DNA of 57,527 nucleotides, from the NCBI GenBank assembly GCA_947170495.1, contig CAMVUB010000010.1, forward strand, positions 1 to 57,527, given 5' to 3'. The position numbers were made by a program, and so were the translations under genes. This document shows, piece by piece, positions 4,911 to 46,925 of the stretch. This DNA is from an uncultured Prevotellaceae bacterium. GTDB taxonomy: Bacteria > Bacteroidota > Bacteroidia > Bacteroidales > Bacteroidaceae. The notes under the pieces are model-generated. The model was not told the DNA's origin, ran no database searches, and worked only from the letters and a program-made list of their open reading frames with translations. Numbering within the stretch: the first letter of the stretch is position 1; the number at the start of each line of letters is the position of its first letter.

Positions 4911-5894
4911 TTATTCAAGGTCATACCCGAACTGCTTCATGGCGCGGTCGGAGCTGCGCCAGTCTTTATCGACTTTGACGAAGCACTGGAGGAAGATGCG
5001 CTTGCCGAAGAAGCGTTCGAGTTCGCGGCGTGCCTCGGAGCTCACGCGCTTAAGGGCGACGCCCTGATGGCCGATAATGATGCCCTTCTGCGACTCACGC
5101 TCCACGTAGATGACGGCCTCGATGCGAATGAGGTCTTTCTCCTCCTTGAAGCTCTCCACGACGGCCTCTACGCTGTAGGGGATCTCCTTGTCGTAGTAGA
5201 GGAGTATTTTCTCGCGAATGATCTCGGTGACGAAGAAGCGGGCGGGCTTGTCGGTCCACGCGTCCTTATCGAAGTAGGCGGGCGACTCGGGCAGGAGCTC
5301 CTTGATGCGCGCCAGCACCTGATCCACGCCGAACTTATGCAGGGCGGAGATGGGGAAGATCTCGGCCTGCGGCAGGATGGCGTGCCATTCGTCAACCTTA
5401 GCAGCCAAGAGAGCAGTAGGGCTGCTGGCCCCCCCGACGGCCCCCGAGGGGGCCTCTGTTGTTTTGCAATGAGAGGACTTTACATCCGTAGCCCCCTCGG
5501 GGGCTGAATGGGGGGCCACTGGGGCCATATCTATCTTATTGATCAGCACGAGGATGGGGACCTTGAGCTGCTGCACTTTCTCGAGGAAGTCGGCGTTCTT
5601 GTCGGGCGTTTCCACCATATCGGTGACGTAGAGCAGCACGTCGGCATCCTGCAGGGCACTCTCCGAGAACTGGAGCATCTGCTCCTGCAGCTTGTAGTTG
5701 GGCTTCAGCACGCCGGGCGTGTCGGAGAAGCAGATCTGCATCTCGGGCGTGTTGAGGATGCCCATAATGCGGTGGCGCGTGGTCTGTGCCTTGAAGGTGG
5801 CAATACTGATGCGCTCGCCCACGAGGAGGTTCATGAGCGTGCTCTTACCCACGTTGGGGTTGCCTACGATATTGACGAAACCAGACTTAAACAT
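4911..5894 (-). CDS. era: GTPase Era with an in-frame palindromic insertion
   Basis: Era binds the 3' end of 16S rRNA and helps 30S assembly. The G domain is intact: GNPNVGKST (residues 11-19), DTPG and NKID (119-122). The C-terminal KH domain contains GHQGVALKRVS. The protein has 327 residues, about 30 more than usual. The surplus lies directly after NKIDM, at residues 124 to about 165, before the conserved VDEWHAILPQAEIFPISALH. It is encoded by the palindromic element at 5427-5517 and reads APEGATDVK...EAPSGAVGGA. The insertion sits between G4 and G5, probably as a surface loop; all catalytic motifs remain. It lies between fabH and der in an operon-like run. Confidence 0.96.
   Translation of the reverse strand: MFKSGFVNIVGNPNVGKSTLMNLLVGERISIATFKAQTTRHRIMGILNTPEMQICFSDTPGVLKPNYKLQEQMLQFSESALQDADVLLYVTDMVETPDKNADFLEKVQQLKVPILVLINKIDMAPVAPHSAPEGATDVKSSHCKTTEAPSGAVGGASSPTALLAAKVDEWHAILPQAEIFPISALHKFGVDQVLARIKELLPESPAYFDKDAWTDKPARFFVTEIIREKILLYYDKEIPYSVEAVVESFKEEKDLIRIEAVIYVERESQKGIIIGHQGVALKRVSSEARRELERFFGKRIFLQCFVKVDKDWRSSDRAMKQFGYDLE
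5427..5517. repeat. Palindromic element, GGCCCCC class, inside era
   Basis: 91 bp bounded by GGCCCCCC and GGGGGGCC. It contains two inner hairpins: GGCCCCCGAGGGGGCC (5439-5454) and GCCCCCTCGGGGGC (5491-5504). Read in the era frame it encodes PEGATDV...EAPSGAVGGA. The second copy is in thrC (22030-22093), with the same orientation and frame relative to its gene. Confidence 0.85.
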
Positions 5895-6006
5895 AAAGTG
5901 AAAAGTGAAGGAATGAAAAGTGAAAAATAAAAGTTTCCTTGTAAACGGGAATTCGCTTGTGATGCACTCAGCTTTTTTAATTTTTCACTTTTCACTTTTT
6001 CATTGT
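5895..6006. repeat. fabH-era spacer: inverted AAAGTGAAA repeats
   Basis: A run of AAAGTGAAAAGTGAA / AATGAAAAGTGAAAAAT (about 5895-5930) is mirrored by AATTTTTCACTTTTCAC / TTTTTCATT (about 5978-6003). The core between is about 50 bp. This is the same repeat-core-inverted-repeat design as the era-der spacer, with a different repeat word. Related runs lie at 595-608, 21629-21660 and, inside a gene, 32724-32767. Confidence 0.6.
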
Positions 6007-7005: not shown

Positions 7006-7063
7006 GAAAACAATAGTAAATAAAAAAAGCCCCACCCCGACGGGGAGGGGCTTGTGCTAAGAC

Positions 7064-7246
7064 TTACGCTTCTTCCTTCTCGATAGCGACCTTTCCGCGG
7101 TAGTATCCGCAGGCGGGGCATACGGTGTGGTAGATGTGGAACTCTCCGCAGTTAGGACATACTGCCAATGCAGGAGCTACTGCCTTGTCGTGGGTGCGAC
7201 GCTTGAGAGTGCGTGTCTTGGACTGTCTTCTTTTAGGATGTGCCAT
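7064..7246 (-). CDS. rpmF: 50S ribosomal protein L32
   Basis: 60 residues beginning MAHPKRRQSKTRTLKRRTHD, a classic L32 start. Two CxxC pairs (CPNCG and CPACGYYRG) form a zinc ribbon. It lies between yceD and fabH on the same strand. The 5' spacer holds a string of AATTGTCAATTG / AATTTTCAATTTT repeats. Confidence 0.97.
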   Translation of the reverse strand: MAHPKRRQSKTRTLKRRTHDKAVAPALAVCPNCGEFHIYHTVCPACGYYRGKVAIEKEEA

Positions 7247-7259
7247 TTTTAATATATAG

Positions 7260-7857: not shown

Positions 7858-7865
7858 ACGGGCGG

Positions 7866-12551: not shown

Positions 12552-12585
12552 AAACCAATCATCATTCATCAATCATAAATCAACA

Positions 12586-13929: not shown

Positions 13930-15651
13930 ATGAGCTACAAATGGAATTACGAACCTCCCACACCAGAGCGTCAGGAAGCGGCTAAAGCATTGGCTCGCGA
14001 GGTAGGCATTCACCCTGCCTTGGGACTCTTGCTGCTGGACCGCGGCGTGACGACGGTTGCGGAGGCAAGACATTTCTTCCGGCCAGCCATCAGTGAACTG
14101 TTGGATCCTTTCCTCTTCCGCGATATGCGCATAGCGGTGGATCGGCTGAATATGGCTTTGGGGCGTAAGGAACGTATCTTAGTGTATGGAGACTACGATG
14201 TGGATGGCTGCACGGCTGTGGCCCTCGTCTATCGTTTTCTCCAGCGTTTTACGACCAACATCGATTTCTACATTCCTGACCGCTACGAGGAGGGTTATGG
14301 CGTCAGCTACAAGGGTGTTGACTATGCCCGTGAGACGGGTGTGGGGTTGATTATCGTCCTGGACTGCGGCATCAAGGCCTCGGCGGAGATTGCCTACGCC
14401 AAGGAGCACGGCATCGACTTCATCATCTGCGACCACCACGTGCCCGACGATGAGCTGCCGCCGGCGGTGGCCATCTTGAATGCCAAGCGCGTAGATGCCA
14501 CCTACCCCTACGAACATCTCTCGGGCTGCGGCGTGGGCTTCAAGCTGATGCAGGCCTTCGCCATCGACAACGGTATTCCTTTCTCGCAGCTGATGCCGCT
14601 GCTGGACCTCTGCGCCGTGAGCATCGCGTCGGACATCGTGCCCATCTTAGGTGAGAACCGCGTGCTGGCTTATCACGGCCTCAGACAGATCAACGCCAAC
14701 GCGAGCGTGGGCCTGAAGGCGATTATCGAGATCTGCGGACTGAACGATCGTGAGGTGACGATGAACGATATCATCTTCCGAATCGGGCCGCGCATCAATG
14801 CCAGCGGGCGTATGCAGAATGGTGGCGAGGCGGTGGCGCTGCTCGTGGAGCGCGACCCGGACCGCGCGCACCGCATGGCGCTGCAGATCAACGCCTACAA
14901 CGACCAGCGCAAGGATCTCGACAAGGAGATGACCCACGAGGCCAACAGCATCGTGGAGCGTCTGGACCCGGGTCACGAGCACAAGGCGCTGGTGGTCTAT
15001 AACGAGGAGTGGCACAAGGGTGTCATCGGTATCGTGGCATCGCGCCTGACGGAGGTGTACTGCCGTCCGGCAGTGGTGCTGACGCGCTCGGATGATATGG
15101 CTACAGGGTCGGCGCGCAGCGTGGCAGGCTTCGACATCTACAGCGCCATCGCCTCGTGTCGCGACCTGCTGGAGAACTTCGGCGGTCACACCTACGCCGC
15201 GGGTCTCTCGATGAAGGTGGAGAATGTGCCCGAGTTCAAGCGCCGTTTCGAGGAGTATGTGGAGACGCACATCCTGCCCACGCAGATACAGCCGGAACTG
15301 AACATCGACGGGAAACTGGAGTTCAAGGACCTGAGCATCCGCTTCTACAACGACCTGCGCAAGTTTGCGCCCTTCGGACCTGACAACCAGCGTCCGCTGT
15401 TCTGCACGGAGCATGTCTATGACTTCGGCACCAGCAAGGTCGTGGGGCACCATCAGGAGCATATCAAGTTGGAGCTCGTAGATAACAAGAGCAACCATAT
15501 CGTCAATGGCATCGCCTTCGGTCAGAGTTCGCAGGTGCGGCTCATCAAGACGAAGCAGCCTTTCGACATCTGCTACACGGTGGAGGAGAACAGCCATAAG
15601 CGCGGCGAGGTGCAGCTGCAGATTGAGGACATCAGGCAGAGTGAGGAGTAG
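13930..15651 (+). CDS. recJ: Single-strand-specific exonuclease RecJ
   Basis: 573 residues, 5'-3' ssDNA exonuclease of the RecF and mismatch-repair pathways. The DHH phosphoesterase motifs are present: VYGDYDVDGCTAV, LDCGIKA and ICDHHVPDDE. The DHHA1 motif is NFGGHTYAAGLSM and an OB domain forms the C-terminus. The TAG stop (15649-15651) overlaps the left border (T)AGACCC of a palindromic element, so the last codon and stop are at the insertion edge. recQ follows with its start codon inside the same element. Confidence 0.96.
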   Translation: MSYKWNYEPPTPERQEAAKALAREVGIHPALGLLLLDRGVTTVAEARHFFRPAISELLDPFLFRDMRIAVDRLNMALGRKERILVYGDYDVDGCTAVALVYRFLQRFTTNIDFYIPDRYEEGYGVSYKGVDYARETGVGLIIVLDCGIKASAEIAYAKEHGIDFIICDHHVPDDELPPAVAILNAKRVDATYPYEHLSGCGVGFKLMQAFAIDNGIPFSQLMPLLDLCAVSIASDIVPILGENRVLAYHGLRQINANASVGLKAIIEICGLNDREVTMNDIIFRIGPRINASGRMQNGGEAVALLVERDPDRAHRMALQINAYNDQRKDLDKEMTHEANSIVERLDPGHEHKALVVYNEEWHKGVIGIVASRLTEVYCRPAVVLTRSDDMATGSARSVAGFDIYSAIASCRDLLENFGGHTYAAGLSMKVENVPEFKRRFEEYVETHILPTQIQPELNIDGKLEFKDLSIRFYNDLRKFAPFGPDNQRPLFCTEHVYDFGTSKVVGHHQEHIKLELVDNKSNHIVNGIAFGQSSQVRLIKTKQPFDICYTVEENSHKRGEVQLQIEDIRQSEE

Positions 15652-15778
15652 ACCCTCCCCCCTGCCCCTCCCTTGTAGGGCGGGGAGTAATTACTATCAG
15701 GAAATGAATGCGAATGATAGTCAACAGGCAAAGGTATCTACTCCCCTCCCTACAAGGGAGGGGCAGGGGGGAGGGTCT
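15650..15778. repeat. Palindromic element, AGACCC class, between recJ and recQ
   Basis: 129 bp with a nearly perfect 31-bp terminal inverted repeat (AGACCCTCCCCCCTGCCCCT and its complement), surrounding about 65 bp of lower GC. The left end supplies bases of the recJ stop codon. The core supplies the recQ start (15704), and the right arm is read as STPLPTREGQGGGS. It is the same architecture as the element at 20183-20317. Confidence 0.9.
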
Positions 15779-17754: not shown

Positions 17755-20184
17755 ATGAAAGTACTTAAATTCGGCGGAACATCGGTTGGTTCCGCAGAAA
17801 GCATCTCAAGTGTCAAGCGTATTGTCGAGGCGCAGAAGGAACCCGTCATCGTGGTGGTGTCAGCGCTGGGCGGCCTCACCGACAAGTTGATACAGACGTC
17901 GCAGCTCGCCGTCAGTGGCGATGTGGGCTATCTCACCTCCTATGCCGAGATGGCTGAGCGCCACCACACGATGATTGACGCGGTCATCCCCGCCGGTGCC
18001 AAGCGCGATGCCCTCATCCGTATCGTCGATGGCCTCCTCGAGGAACTGCGCTCCATCTATCAGGGTGTCTATCTCATTCGCGACCTGTCGCCGAAGACGC
18101 AGGCGGCCATCGTCAGCTACGGCGAACGCCTCTCCAGTCACATCGTGGCAACGCTCATCAGCGGCGCCCAGCTCTATGACAGCCGCGAGTTCATCAAGAC
18201 CGAGGTCAAGGGCGGCCGTTCGCTGCTGGCCAGCGAGAGGACGAACCGCCTTGTGCGCGAGACGTGGAAGACGCTGCCGCAGGTGTCCGTCGTGCCGGGT
18301 TTCATCTCCACAGATGCCGAGAGCGGCGAGATCACGAACCTCGGACGTGGCGGCTCGGACTACACCGCCAGCATCATCGCCGCTGCGCTGGATGCCAGCG
18401 TGTTGGAAATCTGGACCGACGTGGACGGCTTCATGACCGCCGATCCGCGTGTCATCTCTTCGGCCTACGTCATTCCCGAACTCTCCTACATCGAGGCGAT
18501 GGAGCTGTGCAACTTCGGTGCCAAGGTGGTCTATCCCCCGACCATCTACCCCGTCTGCATCAAGAACATTCCCATCCTCATCAAGAATACCTTCAACCCC
18601 GACGCTACGGGAACCATCATCAAGAAGGAGGTGGCCGACGACAGCCGCTCCATCAAGGGCATCAGCTCCATCAAGGGCACGACGCTCATCACCGTCTCAG
18701 GTCTCTCTATGGTGGGTGTCATCGGTGTCAACCGCCGCATCTTTTCCGTCTTGGCTGAGAACGGAATCTCGGTGTTCATGGTGTCGCAGGCATCGTCCGA
18801 GAACAGCACCAGTATCGGTGTGCGCGACGAGGATTCCGCTGAAGCCTGCCGCGTGCTCAACGAGGAGTTCGCCAAGGAGATAGAGACGGGTTCCATGTTC
18901 CGCATGCAAGCCGAGGGCAACCTGGCCACCGTCGCTGTCGTGGGTGAGAACATGAAGCACACGCCGGGTATCGCCGGTAAGCTCTTCGGCACGCTGGGCC
19001 GTTCGGGTATCAGCGTCATCGCCTGCGCGCAGGGTGCTTCGGAGACGAATATCTCGTTCGTCGTGGATTCGCAGTACCTGCGCAAGACCTTGAATGTCAT
19101 TCACGATGCTTTCTTCCTCTCGGAGTATCAGGTGCTGAACCTCTTCCTCTGCGGCGTCGGCACCGTGGGCGCTTCGCTCATCGAGCAGATCGCCTCGCAG
19201 CAGCAGAAGCTGATGCAGGAGCAGGGCCTGAAGCTGAATATCGTGGGCCTCGCCAGCAGTCGCAAAGCGCTCTTCTCGCGCGAAGGCATCGACCTCAGCA
19301 ACTACCGCGAGCAGTTGGAGGCCGCGCCCGCCAGCAACACGAAACGTCTGCGCGACGAGGTCATTGGCATGAACATCTTCAACTCCGTCTTCGTGGATTG
19401 CACGGCCTCGGCAGAGGTGGCAAGCCTGTACAAGGAGTTTCTGGAACACAATATCAATGTCGTGGCGGCCAACAAGGTGGCTGCCAGCAGCGACTACGAG
19501 AACTACCACGCGCTGAAGACCATCGCGCAGCGTCGCGGTGTCAAGTTCCTCTTCGAGACCAATGTGGGTGCCGGCCTGCCCATCATTCGTACCATCAACG
19601 ACCTGATACACTCGGGCGACAAGATCCTGCGCATCGAGGCAGTCCTCAGTGGCACGCTCAACTTCATCTTCAATAAGATCAGCGCCGATGTACCGTTCTC
19701 CCAGACCGTGCGCATGGCCAAGGAGGAGGGCTACAGCGAGCCCGATCCGCGCATCGACCTCAGCGGCACCGACGTCATTCGCAAGCTGGTCATCCTCACC
19801 CGCGAGGCGGGCTACCGCATCGAACAGTCCGATGTGGAGGCTGACCTCTTTATCCCGCAGACCTTCTTCAGCGGTGATGTGGACAAGTTCTGGAAGGAGC
19901 TGCCATCCCTCGATGCCGACTTCGAGCAGCGCCGTCAGCGCGTGGAGGGCGAAGGCAAGCGTTGGCGCTTCGTGGCGAAGTACGAGGACGGTCACGCCCG
20001 CGTGGCCCTCGCCGAGATCCCTGCCAACCACCCCTTCTATCGTCTCGAAGGCAGCAACAATATCGTCATGCTCACCACAGAGCGCTACCGCGAATATCCC
20101 ATGCTCATCCAGGGCTATGGTGCCGGTGCCAGCGTCACCGCCGCCGGCGTCTTCGCGGATATTATGAGTATTGCTAATATTTAG
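17755..20184 (+). CDS. thrA: Bifunctional aspartokinase / homoserine dehydrogenase
   Basis: 809 residues. Catalyses the first and third steps from aspartate to threonine and methionine. The aspartokinase domain starts with MKVLKFGGTSVGSAESI and contains GRGGSDYTASIIAAAL and WTDVDGFMTADPRV. Two ACT regulatory domains follow around SIKGTTLITVSG and GNLATVAVVGENM. The homoserine dehydrogenase part begins with LFLCGVGTVGASLIEQI (NAD(P) binding) and contains ETNVGAGLPIIRT and EGYSEPDPRIDLSG. Length is normal. The TAG stop (20182-20184) overlaps the left border of a palindromic element. First gene of thrA / homoserine kinase-like / thrC. Confidence 0.97.
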   Translation: MKVLKFGGTSVGSAESISSVKRIVEAQKEPVIVVVSALGGLTDKLIQTSQLAVSGDVGYLTSYAEMAERHHTMIDAVIPAGAKRDALIRIVDGLLEELRSIYQGVYLIRDLSPKTQAAIVSYGERLSSHIVATLISGAQLYDSREFIKTEVKGGRSLLASERTNRLVRETWKTLPQVSVVPGFISTDAESGEITNLGRGGSDYTASIIAAALDASVLEIWTDVDGFMTADPRVISSAYVIPELSYIEAMELCNFGAKVVYPPTIYPVCIKNIPILIKNTFNPDATGTIIKKEVADDSRSIKGISSIKGTTLITVSGLSMVGVIGVNRRIFSVLAENGISVFMVSQASSENSTSIGVRDEDSAEACRVLNEEFAKEIETGSMFRMQAEGNLATVAVVGENMKHTPGIAGKLFGTLGRSGISVIACAQGASETNISFVVDSQYLRKTLNVIHDAFFLSEYQVLNLFLCGVGTVGASLIEQIASQQQKLMQEQGLKLNIVGLASSRKALFSREGIDLSNYREQLEAAPASNTKRLRDEVIGMNIFNSVFVDCTASAEVASLYKEFLEHNINVVAANKVAASSDYENYHALKTIAQRRGVKFLFETNVGAGLPIIRTINDLIHSGDKILRIEAVLSGTLNFIFNKISADVPFSQTVRMAKEEGYSEPDPRIDLSGTDVIRKLVILTREAGYRIEQSDVEADLFIPQTFFSGDVDKFWKELPSLDADFEQRRQRVEGEGKRWRFVAKYEDGHARVALAEIPANHPFYRLEGSNNIVMLTTERYREYPMLIQGYGAGASVTAAGVFADIMSIANI

Positions 20185-20317
20185 ACCCCCTCCTCACTCC
20201 CCCTTGTAGGGGGAGGGTGGTCACCTTTCAAGAATAGGAGTAATGATTGAGAATCTTGATAGTCATTTGTCAGATAGTAATAACTCCCTCCCTACAAGGG
20301 AGGGCGGGGGGAGGGTC
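20183..20317. repeat. Palindromic element, AGACCC class, between thrA and the homoserine kinase-like gene
   Basis: 135 bp. The left arm is AGACCCCCTCCTCACTCCCC, then CTTGTAGGGGGAGGG. The right arm has CTCCCTCCCTACAAGGG, then AGGGCGGGGGGAGGGTC. The arms are imperfect inverted repeats, each with its own small hairpin. The core shares TGATAGTCA and ACTCCC spacing with the recJ-recQ element. It carries the next gene's ATG at 20243 and its first codons. Confidence 0.88.
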
Positions 20318-21628
20318 CGCCATTTAATCATATTGGGCGACGGCATGGCCGATTGGCATGTGCCATCGCTGGGCGGTAAGACCCTCCTGCAATATGCCGA
20401 CACGCCCGCTATGGACTGGCTGGCGCGCAACGGGCGCAACGGCTTGCTGAAGACCGTGCCCGACGGCTTCCATCCCGGCAGCGAGGTCGCCAATAGCAGC
20501 ATCCTTGGCTACGACCAGCACCTCGTCTATGAGGGTCGCGGCCCGTTGGAGGCCGCCAGCATCGGCGTGGAACTGGAGCCGGGCGACCTGGCGCTGCGCT
20601 GCAACCTCGTGTGCATTGAGGGTGACATCCTGAAGAACCACTCCTGCGGGCGCCTCGAAACCGAGGAGGGCGACGTGCTCATCAAATTCCTGAACGAGCA
20701 CTTGGCCAACGACCGCGTCCACTTCTACACAGGCGTACAGTACCGCCACCTCTTGGTCATCAAAGGCGGCAACAAGCATATCCAATGCACGCCGCCCCAC
20801 GATATTCCCGGAAAACCCTGGAGGTCTTTTCAGATCCAGGCTCTCCCCGCCCCAACAGGGGAGGGGTCGGGGGAGGGGCCTGAAGAGACCGCAGCTTTGC
20901 TGCGCGACCTCGTCCTCCGCTCCCAGGAGCTCCTGCCTACGCATTCTTTAAATAAGGAACGCGCGCGTGCGGGCAAGGACATGGCTTCGAGCATCTGGCC
21001 GTGGGGTGGGGGCTACCGTCCGCAGATGGTACCCTTGACCGAGCGCTTTCCGCAGATCCGTCGCGGCTCCGTCATCACCGCCGTCGATCTCATCCGTGGC
21101 ATTGGCCGCTATGCAGGTCTGAACGTCATCAACGTGCCGGGTGCTACGGGTCTCTACGACACCAACTTCGAGGGCAAGGCACAGGCTGCCATCGATGCCT
21201 TCCGCGCTGGCGACGACTTCGTCTATCTCCATGTCGAAGCCTCCGATGAGGCCGGTCACGACGGTTCCGTCCCCCTCAAACTCCAAACCATCGAAGACCT
21301 CGACCATCGCCTGATACAGCCCATATTGAAGACCCTCTCCCCGCTCTCCCGTAAGGGCGAGGGCCTCACTTCGTTCGATAGCTGCGCGCAGCCTCTCCCC
21401 TCCATTACGGGAGGGGACGGGGGTGGGTCTTTCGCTATCGCTTTATTGCCCGACCATCCCACTCCCTGCGAGCACCGCACACACACCGCCGAGCCCATCC
21501 CCTTCTGCATCTACTACCCCGGCATCGAGCCTGACAGCGTGCAGACCTTCGACGAAGATGCCGCGCGTGCCGGCTCCTACGGCCTCCTCGAAGGCGATGA
21601 ATTCATCGAGTTGTTTATGAAGAATTAA
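20243..21628 (+). CDS. ApgM-type phosphomutase, proposed homoserine kinase
   Basis: 461 residues of the cofactor-independent phosphoglycerate mutase (ApgM) superfamily. The N-terminal metal motif is ILGDGMADWHV. Also visible are SSILGYD, GRGPLEAASIG, NHSCGRLETEEG, WPWGGGYRPQM and the metal-binding VEASDEAGHDG and LLPDHPTP. The family member placed between thrA and thrC in genomes lacking ThrB has been proposed to act as homoserine kinase (TIGR02535); this position and the absence of thrB here fit that role. Three segments look foreign and match palindromic elements: residues 1-26 (with the start codon), ALPAPTGEGSGEGP (about 199-212) and about 25 residues around PLSRKGEG...PLPSITGGDGGG. Without them the length is close to the family norm of about 400. 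Confidence 0.92.
   Translation: MIENLDSHLSDSNNSLPTREGGGRVRHLIILGDGMADWHVPSLGGKTLLQYADTPAMDWLARNGRNGLLKTVPDGFHPGSEVANSSILGYDQHLVYEGRGPLEAASIGVELEPGDLALRCNLVCIEGDILKNHSCGRLETEEGDVLIKFLNEHLANDRVHFYTGVQYRHLLVIKGGNKHIQCTPPHDIPGKPWRSFQIQALPAPTGEGSGEGPEETAALLRDLVLRSQELLPTHSLNKERARAGKDMASSIWPWGGGYRPQMVPLTERFPQIRRGSVITAVDLIRGIGRYAGLNVINVPGATGLYDTNFEGKAQAAIDAFRAGDDFVYLHVEASDEAGHDGSVPLKLQTIEDLDHRLIQPILKTLSPLSRKGEGLTSFDSCAQPLPSITGGDGGGSFAIALLPDHPTPCEHRTHTAEPIPFCIYYPGIEPDSVQTFDEDAARAGSYGLLEGDEFIELFMKN
20837..20881. repeat. Short palindromic element inside the homoserine kinase-like gene
   Basis: About 45 bp. CAGGCTCTCCCCGCCCC pairs imperfectly with GGGGTCGGGGGAGGGGCCTG, with a small inner CCCC-aaca-GGGG hairpin. 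It is read in frame as ALPAPTGEGSGEG. Confidence 0.75.
21330..21430. repeat. Palindromic element, AGACCC class, inside the homoserine kinase-like gene
   Basis: 101 bp from AGACCC to GGGTCT, with arms CCCGTAAGGGCGAGGG and CCCCTCCATTACGGGAGGGG. In frame it gives TLSPLSRKGEG...AQPLPSITGGDGGGSF, just before the metal-binding FAIALLPDHPTP. Its right half is nearly identical to the half-element in thrC at 22723-22765. Confidence 0.85.
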
Positions 21629-21664: not shown

Positions 21665-23080
21665 GTGTTCTACTACAGTACCAATCATAAAGCTGCGCGC
21701 GCGACGTTGCGCGACGCTGTGGTCCGCGGACTCGCAGAAGACCGCGGTCTGTATATGCCCGAGGTCATCAAGCAACTGCCAGCCTCGTTCTGGGACGAGA
21801 TGGCAGAGATGACCTTTCAGGAAGTCGCTTACCGTGTCGCTGATGCCTTCTTCGGCGAAGATGTGGAGGCCGAGGCACTCCGTAAGATTGTCTATGACAC
21901 GCTGGCCTTCGACACCCCCGTCGTGAAGGTCGAGGACAATATCTACGCCCTCGAGCTCTTCCATGGTCCCACCCTCGCCTTCAAGGATGTGGGTGCAAGG
22001 TTTATGGCACGCCTATTACAATATATGTTGGCCCCCCTTTCATCCCCCGAGGGGGATACAAATGAGGCCCCCTCGGGGGCAGTCGGGGGGGCCGCGACTG
22101 TGAACGTCCTCGTTGCCACCTCCGGCGACACGGGTTCCGCTGTGGCCAATGGCTTCCTTGGCGTGGAAGGCATTCATGTCTATGTCCTCTATCCCAAGGG
22201 CAAGGTGTCACCCATTCAGGAGTGTCAGTTCACGACCCTCGGCAAGAATATCACCGCTATCGAGGTCGATGGCGTCTTCGATGATTGTCAGGCTTTGGTG
22301 AAGTCCGCCTTCATGGACAAGGACCTCAACGCGCACATGCGCCTCACCTCCGCCAACAGCATCAACGTCGCCCGCTTCCTCCCGCAAGCGTTCTATTACT
22401 TCTGGGCTTACGCACAAATGCTCAGATTAAATGCCGGAAAGGCATTTAATCTGACCTTCTGTGTACCTTCCGGCAACTTCGGCAATATCTGCTCTGCCCT
22501 CTTTGGTCACGTCATGGGTCTGCCCGTGAAGCGTTTCATTGCCGCCAACAACGCCAACAGCGTCTTCTACGAGTACCTGCAGAGCGGTGAGTATCGTCCG
22601 CGTCCGTCCATCCAGACCATCGCCAACGCAATGGATGTCGGCGACCCCTCCAACTTCGCCCGCATCCTCGACCTCTACAATAGAACCGATGTACAGGAGA
22701 TTTTGCGGCAGCGCTCCATCGCGCAGCCTCTCCCCTCCCTCACGGGAGGGGTCGGGGGTGGGTCTTTCATCAGCGGCGCCACCTACACCGACGCCCAGAT
22801 TGCGGAGACCATGCGCGACTGCTATGCCCGCACAGGTTATGTCCTCGATCCCCACGGAGCCTGTGGCTATCGTGCCCTCAAGGAGCAGCTTCGTCCTGAT
22901 GAAATCGGCATTTTCTTGGAGACCGCCCATCCCGCCAAATTCAAGGACACCGTCGATCGCATCCTCGGCATCGACCTCCCCATCCCCGAGAAACTGCAGG
23001 TCTTCATGCGTGGTACCAAGCAAAGCGTACCCATGACAAAGAACTTCGAGGACTTCAAGCAGTACCTTATGCAGCAATAA
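21665..23080 (+). CDS. thrC: Threonine synthase with two in-frame palindromic insertions
   Basis: 471 residues starting with GTG (FYYSTNHKAARATLRDAV). PLP enzyme converting O-phosphohomoserine to threonine. The PLP lysine is K107 in HGPTLAFKDVGARF. The phosphate-binding SGDTGSAVANGF and the VPSGNFGNICSALFG segment are intact. Compared with the family (about 430 residues) two pieces look extra. Residues about 122-144 (PLSSPEGD...EAPSGAVGGA) come from the element at 22030-22093. About 15 residues ([16 protein letters not shown]) come from 22723-22765. A perfect 13-bp hairpin at 22423-22453 also lies within the coding sequence. Last gene of the threonine operon; a bidirectional terminator follows. 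Confidence 0.95.
   Translation: MFYYSTNHKAARATLRDAVVRGLAEDRGLYMPEVIKQLPASFWDEMAEMTFQEVAYRVADAFFGEDVEAEALRKIVYDTLAFDTPVVKVEDNIYALELFHGPTLAFKDVGARFMARLLQYMLAPLSSPEGDTNEAPSGAVGGAATVNVLVATSGDTGSAVANGFLGVEGIHVYVLYPKGKVSPIQECQFTTLGKNITAIEVDGVFDDCQALVKSAFMDKDLNAHMRLTSANSINVARFLPQAFYYFWAYAQMLRLNAGKAFNLTFCVPSGNFGNICSALFGHVMGLPVKRFIAANNANSVFYEYLQSGEYRPRPSIQTIANAMDVGDPSNFARILDLYNRTDVQEILRQRSIAQPLPSLTGGVGGGSFISGATYTDAQIAETMRDCYARTGYVLDPHGACGYRALKEQLRPDEIGIFLETAHPAKFKDTVDRILGIDLPIPEKLQVFMRGTKQSVPMTKNFEDFKQYLMQQ
22030..22093. repeat. Palindromic element, GGCCCCC class, inside thrC
   Basis: 64 bp bounded by GGCCCCCC and GGGGGGGCC, with hairpins ATCCCCCGAGGGGGAT and GCCCCCTCGGGGGC. Reads SSPEGDTNEAPSGAVGGA, matching PEGATDV...EAPSGAVGGA of the era copy. 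It lies between GARFMARLL and the conserved VNVLVATSGDTG. Confidence 0.88.
22423..22453. repeat. Perfect 13-bp AT-rich hairpin inside thrC
   Basis: CAGATTAAATGCC - ggaaa - GGCATTTAATCTG. It is AT-rich in a GC-rich gene, encodes LRLNAGKAFNLT and precedes the conserved VPSGNFGN. Only about two residues are extra compared with what I expect of the family. Confidence 0.7.
22723..22765. repeat. Half palindromic element inside thrC
   Basis: About 43 bp, GCAGCCTCTCCCCTCCCTCA then CGGGAGGGG and a GGGTCT border. Matches the right half of the element at 21330-21430 and is read in the same frame (AQPLPSxTGGxGGGSF). Confidence 0.85.
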
Positions 23081-28761: not shown

Positions 28762-28806
28762 AGACCCACCCTCAAATCCCTCCCGTGAGGGAGGGAAGTG
28801 GCTGGC
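28762..28806. repeat. Half palindromic element directly upstream of recA
   Basis: AGACCCACCCTCAAATCCCT plus CCCGTGAGGGAGGG and GGCTGGCGCG. It is the same half-unit as in thrC and the MG2-protein gene, in the opposite orientation. It places a GC hairpin within about 25 nt of the recA start. Confidence 0.8.
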
Positions 28807-30370: not shown

Positions 30371-33300
30371 CTACCTCACCACTCTCCCTTTTCCGTAGAG
30401 GAGGGCGCCGTCGGAAGTTTGGCCGGCGGCATCGATGGAGATCTGGGTGGCCTGGCTGTTGTTGAAGAGTTTGACGTGGGCGCGGCCGCTGGCGTCGAGC
30501 TTCAGGTCGGGGTTCCAGTAGAGGGTGCGACGGTAGTCCTTGTGTCCCTCCGTGGGCGGATGGCGCTGGTAGTCGGGGTGGTAGAAGTCCTCCTGATAGG
30601 CGAAGCCGTCGAGAATGTAGCGGCGGTCGCGATAGACGACGCGCTGCGTCTGGTCGGGAAAGCGTCGCAGATCGACCGCCACGATGGGCTGGTTGTCCTG
30701 GTCGTAGCGCTCATCGCCCTCGCGCCGGGGGGAGTAGTCGGTGTAGATGTATATCTTATCAATATAGGTGAGCAGCCCCCATCGTTTCTGATCCAGCGGT
30801 CCCCACCAGTAGCCTTCGTCCCAATGGTCCTGATAGGTTCTGAAGTCCCAATGGCGGTACATCGCCATGTCCGAGATGAGGGTCTTGCACACTTGGTAAG
30901 CCACGCAGTAAGATTCATTGGTATATCTCACTAATCCTGCATCCATCGCGAGATTCAGGGCCTCATAAGCATCAATGACATAGGCGGGCTTGGAGAAATC
31001 TATGTGCCGCAGACCGCCATGACGCGCACGCACGGTGACCTGGTCGAGGACATGGGTGCCGTCGGTCAACAGGCGTGGCGACAGATAGGTAGTGTCGCTC
31101 AGCGGAGCGTTGTGTACCTGGTAATAGCTGTAGGGCTTCACCCATCGGGGATAGGGATAGTTCAGGCGGACATAGTATTCGGGATAGTCTGGCAAGCGCC
31201 CGGCCATCGCGTCGTACTCGTCGTAATCATCTAACTGCACCCAAGCGTGCGGCCAGTTGCCATATTTCCCGCGTCGCCGGCGCAAGCCGTCCCATTTCCG
31301 GTTCCATTTGGTGGTGTCGCTGGCGCCTAAGTAGAACAGACAGCTGCCCTCGAAGCGCGGAAGGTCAATCTGGAAGCGCCCCTGCGCGGTCTCTGTCTCG
31401 CCAATCAGGTTGTTACGCGTATTGAAGGGATCCACGAACTCTGCGTGCACGCGCACCTCCTTCTTCACGGTACCCGTCTCCTGATAGCGTCGTGCCAGCA
31501 CGCTCTGCTGCCGCCGCAGATTCTCGCGATAGGACTTCGTCGTCCTGAAACTCAGCTGGTTGTAATCGGTATTGTCCCATCCGTGCCCCTGTCGGGAAAA
31601 GATGCCGTGCCAGGTGTCGCTGATGGCTCCTATCTGGCTGCGGCGCTCGTAAAGGGGATTGAGGTTCCACGCCATGTTTCTCTTGGAGAAGTCGCTTCCA
31701 TAGTCGCCAAAGTTGAACTTCGAGGCAGGTTGGCCATCAGCCTGGAAGAGCGGCGACTGCTGCTGTTCGCTCAGCGAGGGTGTCCACTCTGTCATGAAGC
31801 GGTCGTGGTCAGCCTGTACCTGGTCATAGAGGTTTTCCTCGACCCAGTAGCGGTTCACGGTGCCCGTGACAATCTGCGTGTGCTCTGCGGGATGTGTGAT
31901 GTCCCAGGCTCCCTTGATGGCCATCTCCTGCCAGTTGAAGCGTCGCCAGCCCTGTGTCATCATCAGCAGGTCGAGGGCGCGGCGGTGCTCCTCATCGTCC
32001 TTCTCGAAGAAGTAGTCGGGCTGCGGCACGAAGCCTTTGATTTCGCTGGAGAGCAGCATCTCTGTCATGATGTTGCCGCTGTCGAAAGTGTTGTCGGCGT
32101 GGACGGCATCGCGCACGGTGAGCGACACGGTCTGGTCAGGCATCAAATGGGCAGAGGTGATGTCGATGTCGATAGGCTCGAAGGGCGCATACTGATCCTT
32201 GAGGCCCGTGTATTGCAGCGTGGGCTGTGCGAGTTCCGGACGTGTGACGAAGAAGAGGCGATCGGCATAGATATGTCCGATGCTGTCGAACACCGTGACT
32301 TGATTGATACCCATTGGCAAATCATCGTGGACAGTCGTCCACGTTGTATTTGCGATTTCTTCAAAATGGACCAGCTTGCCTTCGTGCATCACCGTGAGAC
32401 CCAACGGCTCTTGGGCAGCCTTCCCTGCCGCAGCGATGTCGAAGCGCCAGTCGCCTGTGAGGCTGTCGCGATGCACCTGCAGGCTGACGCCCTCGGCCTT
32501 CACGTTCGTGATCGTTTGGGACACAGACCCCTCTAAATCTCCCCGTGAGGGGAGACTTTCTTGTCCTCGAGAAGTCTGTGCGCCAGCCAACTCCCCTCCC
32601 TCACGGGAGGGGTCGGGGGTGGGTCTAAACACCGCTTCGTACTTCGTTCCCTCCTGTGGCGTGAAGGTGAAGGTGCCGCGACCTCGGTTCTCGGTTCTCA
32701 CGCTGAGGAGTTCGTAGCCCTTATCATTTTTAAATTTTTCACTTTTCACTCTTTCATTTTTCACTTGAAGGCTCAGCGTTCCATCGCGTACCTCTCCCTC
32801 GCTGGTCGCCGCCTCAAAGGCAACGCGACAAGGCACTCCGGCCACGAGGTTGCCGCCCTCGGGGAACAGCGAGAGGCGCAGCTCGGCGGGCTTCGGTGCA
32901 CTCTTGAAATAGCGGCGCAGCGGGCGCAGGGTCATGTCCTTGTAGAAATCGCCCGGCTGTCGGGGCTTGTCATAGACGGGGAAGACGCGCGAGTAGAGCT
33001 TCTCGTAGTCGCGGAAGAAGTCCTTGGCCATCGCCTTGTTATAGAACCAGTACTCCGAGTACCAGGCGTGGTAGTGCTCCGTCTGTCCCCAGTTGAGTTG
33101 CCAGCGCGTGTAGGCGCGCAGCTCGAAGTAGCCGGAGTAGAGCGTGTCGGGCAGTGCAAAGAAGCCGTGGCCGCGCCCGTCCTTCATCTCGATGAGCTTG
33201 CGCTCCACGAGGTAGCCGTCGTGGTTCCACAGTTCGGCATAGAGGACGCGGCTCAGGCGGCTGGGCGTGTCGGTGTTGGTCTTGCGCAGGTAAGCCGCGA

Positions 33301-35435: not shown

Positions 35436-35437
35436 GG

Positions 35438-37215: not shown

Positions 37216-38679
37216 ATGCTTAACGACGAAGAAAAGAGGTCTATCATGGCACTGCTGCATGAGCAGGTGGTGCCGGCCATAGGGTGTACGGAGCCGATGG
37301 CGGTGGCGCTGTGTGTGGCGCGTGCCACAGAGTTGTTGAATGCCACGTTGGCGGGTGCCGCGAAGGTGGTGCCGGAGCACATCGAGCTGAGCCTAAGTGC
37401 GAACATCCTGAAGAATGCGATGGGTGTGGGCATCCCCGGCACAGGCGGTATGGTGGGCTTGCCCATCGCCATCGCCCTCGGTGCCATCGGCGGCAAGTCG
37501 TGTCTGGGCTTGGAGGTGCTGCGCGACTGCACGCCTGCGGACCTGGAAGCGGGCAAGCGTTACATCGCTGAGGACCATATCCACATCGCCCTGGAAGAGA
37601 AGGACCCCGACAAGCTGTATATTCATGTGGTGGCGAAGGCCGCTGGCAAGGAGGCGGAGGCCTGCATCAAGGGGAACCACACCAACTTCATAGAAAGACC
37701 CACCCCCAACCTTACCCGTCCTCAGCAGAGGAGTTCTGCTTCGGTCGCTCAGGACGGCTTGACATCTAGTCAACCCGTTGACACCTTCGCTACCCGTGAG
37801 GGAGGGGAGAAGGCTGGCGCAGAGAACGCAAATGGAAATGTAAGTCTCCCCTCACGGGGAGATTTAGAGGGGTCTTTGGCTCTCCCCCTCACGGGGGAGC
37901 GGGGAAAGGGTCTTTACTCTCTCACCTTATTTAAGGTCTATGAGTTTGCGACCACGATGCCGCTGGAGGAGCTGCGCTTCATCCTCGAAGCCAAGCGCCT
38001 GAACGAGGCGGCTGCGGAGGAAGGCCTGCGCGAGAACTACGGCCATCAGCTCGGCAAGACGATGTGCTCGCCGCTGGGTCGCGGCATCATGGGCGACAGC
38101 ATCTTCGCCAAGGTGCTGTCGGTCACCAGCTGCGCCTGCGATGCCCGCATGGCGGGGGCGATGATTCCCGTGATGAGCAACAGCGGCAGCGGCAACCAGG
38201 GTATCTGCGCCACGATGCCCGTGGTGGTCTTCGCGCGCGAGAACCATAATACTGAAGAGGAGCTCATCCGTGCGCTGACGCTCTCACACCTCACCGCCAT
38301 CTATATCAAGCAGTCGCTGGGCTGTCTGTCGGCGCTCTGCGGCTGTGTCGTGGCTTCGACGGGCAGCAGCGTGGGCATCACCTATCTCATGGGCGGCACC
38401 TACGAGCAGATGAGCTACTCGGTGAAGAACATGATTGCCAACCTGACGGGTATGATCTGCGACGGCGCCAAGCCGTCGTGTGCGCTGAAGCTGACGACGG
38501 GCGTGGGCACTGCCGTGATGAGCGCGATGCTGGCCATCCAGAACAAGAACGTCACCAGCGCCGAGGGCATCATCGACGACGATGTGGATAGGAGCATCCA
38601 CAACCTCACCAGCATCGGCTCCCGGGGTATGGATGAGACGGACCGCTTCGTGCTCGACATCATGACACATAAGAGTTAA
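37216..38679 (+). CDS. CyuA/UPF0597 family: L-cysteine desulfidase or L-serine dehydratase-like
   Basis: 487 residues. The family core is clear: PAIGCTEPMAVALCVARA (Cys24), NAMGVGIPGTGGMVGLPIA, SGSGNQGICATMPVV, SLGCLSALCGCVVAS and a GAKPSCALK segment. These cysteines fit the Fe-S cluster of cysteine desulfidase (CyuA/YhaM), which releases sulfide, ammonia and pyruvate. The same family is often annotated as serine dehydratase alpha subunit, so the substrate is uncertain. Normal length is about 430; residues about 160-234 are additional and come from the palindromic cluster at 37696-37913. The insertion follows IKGNHTNFI and precedes LFKVYEFATTMPLEEL, away from the cysteines. The GH3 gene follows after 22 nt. 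Confidence 0.88.
   Translation: MLNDEEKRSIMALLHEQVVPAIGCTEPMAVALCVARATELLNATLAGAAKVVPEHIELSLSANILKNAMGVGIPGTGGMVGLPIAIALGAIGGKSCLGLEVLRDCTPADLEAGKRYIAEDHIHIALEEKDPDKLYIHVVAKAAGKEAEACIKGNHTNFIERPTPNLTRPQQRSSASVAQDGLTSSQPVDTFATREGGEKAGAENANGNVSLPSRGDLEGSLALPLTGERGKGLYSLTLFKVYEFATTMPLEELRFILEAKRLNEAAAEEGLRENYGHQLGKTMCSPLGRGIMGDSIFAKVLSVTSCACDARMAGAMIPVMSNSGSGNQGICATMPVVVFARENHNTEEELIRALTLSHLTAIYIKQSLGCLSALCGCVVASTGSSVGITYLMGGTYEQMSYSVKNMIANLTGMICDGAKPSCALKLTTGVGTAVMSAMLAIQNKNVTSAEGIIDDDVDRSIHNLTSIGSRGMDETDRFVLDIMTHKS
37696..37913. repeat. Composite palindromic insertion (three units) inside cyuA
   Basis: 218 bp from AGACCC to GGGTCT. Unit 1 (37696-37820) is the reverse complement of the intergenic element at 28887-29006 at about 94% identity. 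Unit 2 (37844-37877, CTCCCCTCACGGGGAG) equals the second unit in the MG2-protein gene. Unit 3 (37878-37913) is CTCCCCCTCACGGGGGAG. All three are read in frame without a stop, giving about 73 residues including SLPSRGDLEGSLALPLTGER. Confidence 0.92.
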
Positions 38680-44230: not shown

Positions 44231-44244
44231 GCGACTAAGAAAAG

Positions 44245-44452: not shown

Positions 44453-44459
44453 AGTGGTC

Positions 44460-46925
44460 TTAGAACAGCCCCCCTATTTGCACGACCGCCGCTGAGACAA
44501 TCCAGGCGAGGACGGTGGTGTAGCAGGCTGCGCAAAGGGCCCAGCGCCACGAGGACGTTTCGTTCTTGATGGCTACGATGGTGGCCAGGCAGGGGAAGTA
44601 GAGGAGCACGAAGAGGAGGTAGGCGAAGGCGATGAGGGGCGTGACACCATCTGATGCCATCTGCTGATGCAGACGTGTGTATTTGGCGTTGTCCTCGGCG
44701 AATGTGTCATCGTCGCCGAAACTGTCGTCGCCCGAGTAGAGCACGCCCATCGTGCTGGCGACAATCTCCTTGGCGCCTACGCCCGCGATGAGGCTCACAT
44801 CCAGTTTCCAGTTGAAGTGCTGGGGTGCGAAGACGGGTGAGATGGCTTTACCGGCACGACCGAGATAAGAGGTCTCCATATTTTCGGCTGTGGACACAGT
44901 CGAAGACTTGGAAGGACCAAAGTAGCTCAGTGCCCACACGATGATGCTGGCGACAAGGATGATACCACCCATCTTCTTCAGGTACTCCTTGCCTTTCTCC
45001 CACGTGTGGCGCCCGATGGCCTTGGCCGTCGGCCAGCGATAGGGTGGGAGCTCCATCACGAAAGGCGTGTCCTCGCCCTTGATGATGAAACGCGCGAACA
45101 GGCGCGACACCAGCGCTGCCACAAGAATACCGATGGCGTAGAGCGACACCAGCACTGTGCTGCGCCACTGCGCCGCGAAGAACGTGCCGACAATCATGAT
45201 ATAGATAGGCAGGCGCGCGGAGCACGACATAAAAGGAAGGATCATCATCGTAATCAGTCGCGAGCGGCGGCTCTCGATGGTACGTGTGGCCATCACCGCA
45301 GGTACGTTACAGCCGAAACCCATGACCAGCGGAATGAACGACTTGCCGTGCAGGCCCATGCGGTGCATCAGTTTGTCCATGATGAAGGCAGCACGCGCCA
45401 TATAGCCCGAGTCCTCCATGAACGAGATGAAGCAGTAGAGTATCAGGATCTGCGGCAGGAACACGATGACGCTGCCTACGCCGCCGATGACGCCATCCAC
45501 CAGCATCGACCGCAGCGGTCCTTCGGACATCGTGGCGCCGATCCACTCGCCGAGCCACGCCACGCCCGCCTCAATCCAATCCATCGGGTACTGCCCCAGC
45601 GCGAAGGTTGTCTGGAACATCACGTAGAGGATGAGGAAGAAGATGGGGAAACCTAAGTATTTGTTTGACAGCAGCGCATCAATGCGGTGTGTGGTCTTGT
45701 AGGTGTCTTTCTTCGTGCCTGTGCGGTACTCCGCTTCGGCCAGCGCGCCGTGGATGAAACCGTACTTGGCGTCCATGATGGCCGTCTCGGAATCCACGCC
45801 CGTCTCTTCCATCACGCGGGCTCCGGCGTAGTCGCGTGCCGCCATCAGCCGCTTGCGGTCCTCGCTGCGGTGCTCGCTCTCCACGTGACCCTCGACGAAG
45901 TGAATCATCTCCGCGTCGTGCTCCAGCAGCTTCAGTGCCAGATAGCGCGTGGAGTACTGCGTGCTCAGGTGCTCGTCGGCCTTCAGGAACTGCTGGATAT
46001 GCGTGATGCCGTCCTCAATCTCGTGACCGTAGTTGATATGGATATGTCGCATCTGCGCGTTCGTGCCTTCGAAGACCTCGATGACCGTGTGCAGCAGCTC
46101 TCGCACGCCGCGTCCCGTCTTGAACGATGTCGGGACCATCGGCACACCGAAGAGCGTGGAGAGTGTCTGGATATTCAGATGGTCGCCGCGGCGCTCCAGC
46201 TCGTCGTACATGTTCAGCGCACACACCACCCGCAGGTTCATATCCACCAGCTGTGTCGTCAGGTACAGGTTGCGCTCCAGGTTTGAGGCATCCACGACAT
46301 TGATGATGACGTCCGGGTGTTCCTCCTGCAGGTGCTTGCGCACATACAGCTCCTCGGGTGAGTAGCAGGAGAGGGAATACGTGCCGGGCAAATCCGTCAG
46401 ATGGAAGGTGTAGCCTTCCTGTTCCGCCGTCGCCGTCGTCGCATCCACGGTGACGCCCGAATAATTACCCACACGGGCATGTGCCCCGCTGGCGTAGTTG
46501 AACAGCGATGTCTTGCCGCAGTTCGGGTTACCGATGAGGGCGACAGAAATAAGACCCCCTCCCCGCTCCCCCTCAAGGGGGAGAGTAGAATCTTTTGAGC
46601 AGGCATCCGCCGAGGTCGTTGCAGGAGTAACCGACTCACTCCCATTTTCATGAAGGTGACCACTCTCCCCCTTGAGGGGGAGCGGGGAGGGGGTCCGGAG
46701 AGGTTCCTCTGCAACCTCTATCAACTTCGCCTCGTCGTGCCGGAGGCTGACCTCGTAGCCCATCAGCTTGTATTTCACCGGGTCTTGCAGCGGTGCGTTG
46801 AGGAGCACCTCCACAGGTTGCCCCGTCACGAAGCCCATCTCGATGATGCGCTTGCGGAAGCCGCCGTGGCCGCTCACCTTCACGATGACCGCCTTCTCAC
46901 CCGTCCGTAGTTCCGATAGTTTCAT
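44460..46925 (-). CDS. feoB: Fused FeoA-FeoB ferrous iron transporter
   Basis: 821 residues. Residues 1 to about 72 are a FeoA SH3-like domain (MKLSELRTGEKAVIVKVSG, GFRKRIIEMGFVTGQPVEVL). FeoB follows: G1 GNPNCGKTS (132-140), DLPGTYSLS and NMYDE, then about ten membrane helices with the Gate motifs FMEDSGYMARAAFIMDK and SCSARLPIYIM. It imports Fe(II) across the inner membrane. The FeoA-FeoB fusion is typical of Bacteroidetes. Residues about 77-125 linking the domains are encoded by the palindromic element at 46553-46695 (TPSPLPLKGESG ... STLPLEGERGGG). Promoter at 46955-46948. Confidence 0.96.
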   Translation of the reverse strand: MKLSELRTGEKAVIVKVSGHGGFRKRIIEMGFVTGQPVEVLLNAPLQDPVKYKLMGYEVSLRHDEAKLIEVAEEPLRTPSPLPLKGESGHLHENGSESVTPATTSADACSKDSTLPLEGERGGGLISVALIGNPNCGKTSLFNYASGAHARVGNYSGVTVDATTATAEQEGYTFHLTDLPGTYSLSCYSPEELYVRKHLQEEHPDVIINVVDASNLERNLYLTTQLVDMNLRVVCALNMYDELERRGDHLNIQTLSTLFGVPMVPTSFKTGRGVRELLHTVIEVFEGTNAQMRHIHINYGHEIEDGITHIQQFLKADEHLSTQYSTRYLALKLLEHDAEMIHFVEGHVESEHRSEDRKRLMAARDYAGARVMEETGVDSETAIMDAKYGFIHGALAEAEYRTGTKKDTYKTTHRIDALLSNKYLGFPIFFLILYVMFQTTFALGQYPMDWIEAGVAWLGEWIGATMSEGPLRSMLVDGVIGGVGSVIVFLPQILILYCFISFMEDSGYMARAAFIMDKLMHRMGLHGKSFIPLVMGFGCNVPAVMATRTIESRRSRLITMMILPFMSCSARLPIYIMIVGTFFAAQWRSTVLVSLYAIGILVAALVSRLFARFIIKGEDTPFVMELPPYRWPTAKAIGRHTWEKGKEYLKKMGGIILVASIIVWALSYFGPSKSSTVSTAENMETSYLGRAGKAISPVFAPQHFNWKLDVSLIAGVGAKEIVASTMGVLYSGDDSFGDDDTFAEDNAKYTRLHQQMASDGVTPLIAFAYLLFVLLYFPCLATIVAIKNETSSWRWALCAACYTTVLAWIVSAAVVQIGGLF
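46553..46695. repeat. Palindromic element with perfect 34-bp terminal inverted repeat, inside feoB
   Basis: Left arm 46553-46586, right arm 46662-46695, starting GACCCCCTCCCCGCTCCCCC and ending GGGGGTC; the arms match perfectly by eye. The core is 75 bp. Read in frame as the linker between FeoA and FeoB, with LPLKGE from one arm and LPLEGE from the other. The best-preserved copy in the window. Confidence 0.93.

What the first reader, a model, noticed from the sequence alone, without database searches (positions are those of the whole stretch)
5427..46695. A family of GC-rich palindromic elements inserted in frame into conserved genes
At least eleven short palindromic sequences share borders AGACCC/GGGTCT or GGCCCCC/GGGGGCC and inner hairpins. 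Seven or eight lie inside open reading frames of conserved genes (era, thrC twice, the homoserine kinase-like gene twice, cyuA, feoB, the MG2-protein gene) without breaking the frame. Each adds 14-75 residues in a loop or linker away from catalytic motifs. Peptide words recur: PLPSxTGGxGGGSF, REGGExAGA, SLPSRGDLEGS, EAPSGAVGGA. This is the behaviour known for Rickettsia palindromic elements. I know of no equivalent described for Bacteroidetes, though I cannot search. It would be a system that creates new protein segments from selfish DNA.
Basis: partly seen in the sequence, partly recalled or inferred. Interest (0 to 1): 0.93.

Follow-up and report, generated by a model that had tools for sequence, protein, structure and literature searches.

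The report
Hairpin elements inserted inside working genes
Short GC-rich hairpin DNA elements sit in frame inside and between conserved genes of a gut bacterium, and a longer form that carries a DUF559 nuclease gene between the same kind of ends, likely their mobile parent, lies in frame inside a tRNA synthetase gene and other conserved genes of other bacteria, so that selfish DNA would be adding new stretches to working proteins.

Summary
In detail: 12 element sites in the window, 51 in a 447-kb sample of the genome, none classed as breaking a gene's frame. The interpretation needs enlarging. Each element is a pair of inverted, hairpin-forming arms, or one arm alone. Such arms also bound a DUF559 gene (Vsr/EDxHD-fold nuclease): inverted arms flank DUF559 in 25 of 29 loci of this genome and its relatives above the 95% value of random spans, arm and nuclease sequences co-vary (Mantel r 0.60), and in 25 congeneric genomes element number follows DUF559 number (rho 0.63), not Y1/RAYT number. 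Window elements in era and thrC match arms of DUF559 copies of the same genome or genus. Two insertion modes recur: in frame inside a gene, and at stop/start junctions of operons, where the border abuts or completes the upstream stop codon and usually an ATG in the element opens the next gene. Whole DUF559 elements lie in frame inside the only LeuRS over cut-off of a 99%-complete genome and inside MetH (up to three per protein) and RecG. Works like Rickettsia palindromic elements and REPIN/RAYT, a member of neither. That DUF559 moves the element, and that the segments are translated, is inferred.

The parts
5427..5517 (-). GGCCCCC/GGGGGCC-type two-arm element in frame in era, just after NKID
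   Evidence: matches an arm of the own-genome DUF559 copy on C6 (window 5474-5516, score 37; the C6 arms were set by eye)
15650..15778 (+). two-arm junction element; left border completes the recJ stop (TAG), ATG at 15704 opens recQ through the right arm
   Evidence: arms resemble the own DUF559 copy on C55 (score 23, below the 24 used for counting)
20183..20317 (+). two-arm junction element between aspartokinase/homoserine dehydrogenase and the homoserine kinase-like gene; completes the TAG stop and holds the ATG at 20243
   Evidence: empty sites in relatives read TAATG or ATGA
20843..20880 (+). single arm in frame in the homoserine kinase-like gene; absent from L112
   Evidence: matches an arm of DUF559 element L197, score 34
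21330..21430 (+). two-arm element in frame in the homoserine kinase-like gene
22030..22093 (+). GGCCCCC-type two-arm element in frame in thrC
22726..22765 (+). single arm in frame in thrC; L112 carries a further 78-nt nested insert here
   Evidence: matches an arm of DUF559 element L216 (score 37)
28762..28798 (-). single arm at the 5' end of recA
32525..32626 (-). two-arm element in frame in the 1424-aa ORF 30371-34645
37696..37875 (+). two-arm element with nested repeat, in frame in the SDH_alpha ('cyuA') gene
37877..37913 (+). further arm directly following, same gene
46552..46696 (-). two-arm element in frame in feoB, in the linker before the G domain
4911..5894 (-). host gene era
   Evidence: NF000908, 338 bits
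20243..21628 (+). host gene, homoserine kinase-like / apgM
21665..23080 (+). host gene thrC
   Evidence: TIGR00260
44460..46925 (-). host gene feoB
   Evidence: TIGR00437

Best explanation
The window's elements have the same kind of hairpin arms as a longer element that carries a DUF559 nuclease gene between two inverted arms; the longer form is likely the mobile parent, and its nuclease would drive the spread. Shown by comparison of sequences: arms bound DUF559; full and arms-only elements use the same kinds of sites (at the aspartokinase/homoserine-kinase-like junction one relative, L156, has the whole DUF559 element where others have arms only); arms lie open in the host frame. At gene junctions the left border abuts, or in some cases completes, the upstream stop codon, and in most cases an ATG inside the element opens the downstream gene through the right arm, so both genes stay readable; inside genes both arms, and sometimes the whole nuclease gene, keep the host's frame. 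Inferred: the nuclease (Vsr/EDxHD fold) recognises the arms or cuts the target; copies that broke a frame were removed by selection; the segments are translated and tolerated. Unknown: the strand-transfer or repair step that inserts the copy; no clear target duplication was found.
For: Inverted arms around DUF559 exceed the 95% value of 600 random spans in 25 of 29 loci, the 99% value in 23; phylum set: 20 of 29 above the 95% and 17 above the 99% value of 782 local spans. Mantel r 0.60, 0 of 5000 permutations (n 23). Arms of own DUF559 copies match own arms-only copies (top scores 21-37) and congeneric DUF559 arms match other window arms. Element matches follow DUF559 matches in 25 genomes (rho 0.63, p 0.0008; 3 or more elements in 11 of 14 with and 1 of 11 without DUF559); Y1 does not (rho 0.18, p 0.40). 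L156 holds the full element at the shared junction (DUF559 E 9e-49). Of 23 DUF559 loci with clear arms, 18 have a long upstream frame ending near the left border (random: 62 of 400) and 12 an ATG in the element opening 100 codons or more through the right arm (random: 94 of 400). DUF559 in frame in the only LeuRS over cut-off of G026, in an epimerase, and fused to guanylate kinase. Of 120 listed long proteins, 118 have DUF559 with more than 100 residues on both sides, 9 have two or three copies. Fold: 3hrl, homing endonuclease I-Bth0305I, more weakly Vsr.
Against: No transposition, cleavage or expression data. 4 of 29 and 9 of 29 DUF559 loci show no inverted arms above the 95% value; one of the four is the own C6 copy, whose left arm lies 328 nt away, outside the test, and was set by eye. 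The LeuRS copies L228 and L231 keep arm-like peptides but no DNA inverted repeat (scores 7 and 8). G018 has 34 element matches but no DUF559 found (80% complete); G024 has 3 DUF559 matches and no element match. Element counts of rich genomes are lower bounds (only 21 candidates scored). Arms could be ends moved by another enzyme in trans. Genomes are largely draft MAGs; correlations ignore phylogeny. Y1/RAYT genes also have palindromic flanks (6 of 9), so palindromes around a nuclease gene are not unique.
Confidence: 0.68

Rival explanations
1. RAYT/REPIN-like elements: the arms are REP-type hairpins moved in trans by a Y1 (HUH) transposase, with DUF559 a passenger.
For: Two inverted arms plus single arms resemble REPINs and REPs; termini of GTAG REPs are reported to supply TAG stops (PMC3733652, passages); the own genome has two weak Y1_Tnp matches.
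Against: The two own Y1-like genes show no inverted arms (scores 8 and 8; for L002 an approximate span was used) and fall below the family cut-off; G005, G015, G016, G018 and G019 have many elements and no Y1 match; no correlation (rho 0.18). Y1 genes in relatives carry palindromes of other sequence.
Confidence: 0.1
2. Pure MITE/RPE-like selfish palindromes with no link to DUF559; DUF559 genes merely happened to be flanked.
Against: Arms on both sides of DUF559 far above random spans, arm-nuclease co-variation, full and arms-only copies at one site, association outside Bacteroidota in 5 of 8 records.
Confidence: 0.1
3. The elements are host-evolved translation-coupling or RNA-stability hairpins at operon junctions that secondarily entered genes.
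For: 21 of 51 sites lie at co-directional junctions, 18 of them with the stop beginning before the left border.
Against: Different arm families at the same junction in different species and none in others; intragenic copies; nuclease-bearing copies.
Confidence: 0.05
4. The segments are removed before or during translation (a splicing, intein-like or ribosome-bypass element).
For: Whole nuclease genes sit in conserved genes, in one case the only LeuRS found; hairpins resemble bypass elements (byps recalled, not looked up).
Against: Frames stay open through embedded copies, which removal would not need; the 16 intragenic sites of the sample are open too, but openness is part of that class's definition; no intein domain among the Pfam hits of three DUF559 fusion ORFs.
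Confidence: 0.07

Closest known systems
Rickettsia palindromic elements (RPEs)
   Same: Short palindromic repeats, in frame in unrelated conserved proteins (PMC10969869 and PMC3733652, passages only)
   Different: Other hosts; RPEs have no autonomous gene known to me (recalled); here a DUF559 nuclease lies between such arms, and junction copies hold the next gene's start codon. RPE sequences were not compared
REP/REPIN with RAYT (Y1, HUH) transposases
   Same: Hairpin arms singly or as inverted pairs, one nuclease gene flanked by palindromes, many gene-less copies (partly recalled)
   Different: Nuclease of another superfamily; found in or at coding frames, while most REPs are said to be intergenic (PMC3733652, passage); Y1 number does not follow element number. 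GTAG/CGTC tags were not looked for
EDxHD (Vsr-like) homing endonucleases such as I-Bth0305I
   Same: Fold and sequence relation of the nuclease (3r3p); DUF559 is placed in the EDxHD family in PMC9403480 (passages)
   Different: Homing endonuclease genes are described in introns, inteins or free-standing (PMC3943268, abstract start and passages); here the gene is bounded by hairpin arms and embedded in frame, with no splicing domain in the three ORFs scanned
Double-hairpin elements of chytrid mitochondria (recalled, not looked up)
   Same: GC-rich double hairpins, mobile, also in coding regions
   Different: Organellar; no nuclease partner known to me
Bacteroidetes MITEs such as BrickBuilt of Porphyromonas gingivalis
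   Same: Small inverted-repeat elements in the same phylum (PMC10969869, passages)
   Different: Reported as strictly intergenic there

Membership tests
Rickettsia palindromic elements | In-frame insertion in unrelated protein genes | tested here: met
Rickettsia palindromic elements | Sequence homology to RPE families | not tested
   no RPE sequences were compared; no Rfam scan was run
Rickettsia palindromic elements | Host clade Rickettsiales | tested here: not met
   closest named relatives are Prevotellaceae/Bacteroidaceae MAGs
REP/REPIN-RAYT | Hairpin arms in inverted pairs and singly | tested here: met
REP/REPIN-RAYT | Cognate Y1 (RAYT) gene flanked by the repeats | tested here: not met
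   (own genome: two weak Y1 matches without arms)
EDxHD homing endonuclease | Vsr/EDxHD fold and conserved acidic core | tested here: met
EDxHD homing endonuclease | Site-specific cleavage of the empty allele | not testable with these tools
   needs biochemistry
Intein | Hint splicing domain around the nuclease | tested here: not met
   Pfam scan of three DUF559 fusion ORFs (L204 and L207 embedded, L198 N-terminal): DUF559, its relative MTES_1575 and host-type domains, no intein domain
MITE | Gene-less copies share terminal repeats with a gene-bearing element | tested here: met
   that the gene-bearing form is autonomous is inferred
MITE | Target-site duplication | tested here: inconclusive
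   filled and empty sites are from different species, too diverged

The most novel reading that the evidence does not exclude
A class of autonomous bacterial mobile element: one Vsr-like (DUF559/EDxHD) nuclease gene between hairpin arms that are themselves read as protein. It lands inside genes or on stop/start junctions without splicing, restores the stop and start codons it disturbs, leaves arms-only copies behind, and is a continuing source of new segments in essential proteins of several phyla.
Probability: 0.6. Interest if true: 0.95.

Novelty: new variant of a known kind. Interest (0 to 1): 0.9.

Why it matters
If right, it names a candidate mobiliser for in-frame palindromic elements, gives DUF559, which Pfam still lists as of unknown function, a role as the gene of a mobile element, and provides hundreds of natural insertions, some with a whole nuclease domain inside a conserved enzyme, in which tolerance and reuse of selfish protein segments can be measured. 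It also warns that extra proline/glycine/arginine-rich stretches in gene models of these bacteria may be element-derived.

Tried and rejected
RAYT/Y1 as mobiliser: disfavoured by absence and lack of correlation. Covariance model: not built, because MAFFT put hairpins of different subfamilies out of register; nhmmer on arms was used instead. Target duplication: sought at the aspartokinase/homoserine-kinase-like junction and against the closest relative L112 (95.7% identical); inconclusive. Close pairs among 81 loci: none above 96.6%.

Rows dropped or chosen: of 47 DUF559 matches, 30 gave loci; L209 and L210 (partial matches) were dropped and the own C2 copy, seen in a stretch, was added, giving 29. 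Alignment A2 holds 51 of the 58 DUF559 loci: L200 and L217 (stops), and L213, L241, L245, L249, L250 were left out. Mantel: 23 loci, with the C6 arms set by eye and L217 left out. The six loci below arm score 14 were left out of the ATG count. ThrC: 67 of 81 sequences (others incomplete or under 380 aa). Era regex: 15 of 30 loci resolved, so the block pattern is cited. Plasmids: 8 of 38 records with DUF559 examined, 4 phage records not examined.

Papers: ten searches. DUF559 with 'palindromic' and 'repeat' gives two papers, unrelated by title and abstract start; 14 papers hold DUF559, of which I saw passages of two and the others by title and abstract start. No listing joins DUF559 to palindromic elements or in-frame insertion. 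Subscription papers and most preprints are not in that library.
Full report
1. Observation. The window is contig C10 of a 2.33-Mb draft genome (84 contigs, 79% complete); the closest relatives found among named records are uncultured Prevotellaceae/Bacteroidaceae genomes, many with rumen sample names. Twelve element sites were located. Each is an arm of about 36-45 nt with a GC-rich hairpin and a border AGACCC/GGGTCT or GGCCCCC/GGGGGCC, or two such arms inverted around a spacer. In a sample of 446,861 bases (window plus 20 stretches) a profile of arms gave 77 matches at E up to 1, 59 below 1e-3; 64 of 73 arms have a perfect stem of at least 6 bp, shuffled arms 6.8%.

2. Where they sit. Of 51 sites (39 found by the profile, 12 of the window set by hand), 16 are inside a gene with the same frame on both sides and no stop; 21 (19 two-arm) are at junctions of co-directional genes with the right arm open into the next gene; 1 is a junction whose right arm is not open; 9 have a coding flank on one side only; 2 are other; 2 are too near a stretch's end. 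Of the 21, 18 upstream stops begin before the border, 16 of them within 9 nt; in 5 the border itself supplies letters of the stop (offset -1 or -2), the two window junctions among them; 18 have an in-frame ATG inside the element. No site was classed as one gene with a broken frame. A frame-broken gene could be mistaken for a junction, but a stop ahead of the border argues against that. Frames come from codon usage, not from a curated annotation.

3. Orthologs. In 81 homoserine-kinase-like proteins the window's N-terminal and loop insertions are absent from most, shared by near relatives, and replaced by other arm peptides or unrelated extra residues at the same spots in others. At the aspartokinase junction the empty state often reads TAATG or ATGA; 12 of 81 carry an element or its remnant there, not all independent, and L156 carries a whole DUF559 element (DUF559 E 9e-49). 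ThrC: extra residues, not all arm-like, at three hot spots in 12, 12 and 17 of 67 sequences. Era: see the observation check. Against L112 (95.7% identical) the inserts at 21330 and 22030 are identical, that at 15650 is 98% identical, that at 20843 is lacking, and L112 has an extra nested 78-nt insert in thrC.

4. The DUF559 partner. Three homoserine-kinase-like orthologs (L127, L128, L130) end in arm peptide plus a DUF559 domain. PF04480 is in 19 of 41 relatives and 171 of 296 genomes of a Bacteroidota draw. Its flanks form inverted arms in 25 of 29 loci above the 95% value and 23 above the 99% value of 600 random spans, 14 above their maximum; in the phylum set 20 and 17 of 29. In 8 plasmid records from other phyla, 5 clearly exceed the maximum of spans of the same record (Pseudanabaena, Picosynechococcus, two Deinococcus, Azospirillum lipoferum), one by a single point, two do not. 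Arms and nucleases co-vary. Arms of the three own DUF559 copies match own arms-only copies with top scores 21 to 37; arms of congeneric copies reach 37 against thrC 22720-22766 and 34 against 20841-20880; over all other-genome arms tested the top scores range from 11 to 37.

5. Start codons. The own DUF559 copy on C2 follows a gene ending in TAA and precedes a gene whose start reads MNNQQSPKVTSNPLPLGGGREGAF, opened by an ATG between nuclease and right arm (I recognise the gene as metG by its sequence). Of 23 DUF559 loci with clear arms, 12 have such an ATG opening 100 codons or more through the right arm, and 18 a frame of 100 codons or more that stops within -60 to +45 nt of the left border (in the embedded L207 that stop is in another frame). 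The same two tests on random positions gave 94 and 62 of 400. By sequence words the downstream genes include argG, fmt, argC, leuC and purD (recognised by me, not scanned).

6. Genes inside genes. G026, 99% complete, has one leucyl-tRNA synthetase over the family cut-off, and DUF559 with arm-like peptides lies in its frame between model positions 234 and 238. An epimerase (L207) holds DUF559 inside; guanylate kinase (L198) carries it at the N-terminus. In the phylum set 11 of 29 loci are embedded, in the genus/order set 2 of 29; by sequence words, not scans, phylum hosts include LeuRS, MetH and restriction-modification proteins. Of 150 DUF559 matches listed, 42 lie in open frames of 300 aa or more and 34 in frames of 600 or more. 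A search with the DUF559 part of the LeuRS, which admits only long proteins, found 471 at E up to 1e-10; among the 120 listed I count by Pfam sets 85 methionine-synthase type, 23 leucyl-tRNA synthetase, 9 RecG, 2 TPR and 1 methylmalonyl-CoA mutase. 118 of the 120 have more than 100 residues on both sides of DUF559; P0001 has three copies and P0004 to P0011 two each. The query favours DUF559 like that of LeuRS, so these proportions are not a census.

7. Nuclease. AlphaFold2 model of the C55 protein: mean pLDDT 86. Best solved structures: 3hrl and the homing endonuclease I-Bth0305I catalytic domain, then more weakly Vsr (E 0.013). Ten columns are invariant in 51 sequences, among them D59, E70 and H76.

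8. Controls. In 25 genomes of the genus, element matches follow DUF559 matches (rho 0.63, p 0.0008), not Y1 matches (rho 0.18, p 0.40); completeness explains neither (rho 0.003 and -0.02). Exceptions: G018 (34 elements, no DUF559 found) and G024 (3 DUF559, no element). Y1 genes in relatives have palindromic flanks of their own (6 of 9 above 11), with other sequences.

9. Known work. Passages of PMC10969869 and PMC3733652 describe RPEs and intragenic REPs; PMC12907096 describes a DUF559 Vsr-like protein in Caulobacter (passages); PMC9403480 places DUF559 in the EDxHD homing family (passages). None of ten searches of the held library listed a paper joining DUF559 to palindromic or in-frame elements. 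The element works like RPEs and REPIN/RAYT, but a tested feature of each was not met; its nuclease is related to EDxHD homing enzymes, without a detected intein domain. I therefore rate it a new variant of a known kind, with a bolder reading in the section on the most novel reading.

Noticed in passing
L112 thrC arm; window near 28900-28960 and 37710-37800; L026, L037, L043: A second repeat of about 78 nt (26 codons), nested in hairpin loops of some arms, with its own inverted repeats; in L112 it keeps the thrC frame.
   Followed up: partly
22413-22463: AT-rich palindrome in thrC at a loop where 12 of 67 orthologs carry varied inserts, some arm-like.
   Followed up: partly
10791-10944 and 12402-12552: Two copies of an intergenic repeat of about 150 nt, each ahead of an ORF.
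   Followed up: no
4800-4893, 5897-6012, 7244-7338, 32712-32781: Simple GTTTAAAG and TTTTTCACTTTTCAC repeats, partly as inverted pairs, mostly at gene ends.
   Followed up: no
L298, L299, L303: Y1/RAYT genes of relatives are flanked by REP-like inverted repeats unlike the window's arms.
   Followed up: no
L001 1180-2331 (G000:C51): Weak Y1_Tnp relative with a long C-terminal part; about 1.7 kb from a FeoB-type element but not flanked by arms.
   Followed up: partly
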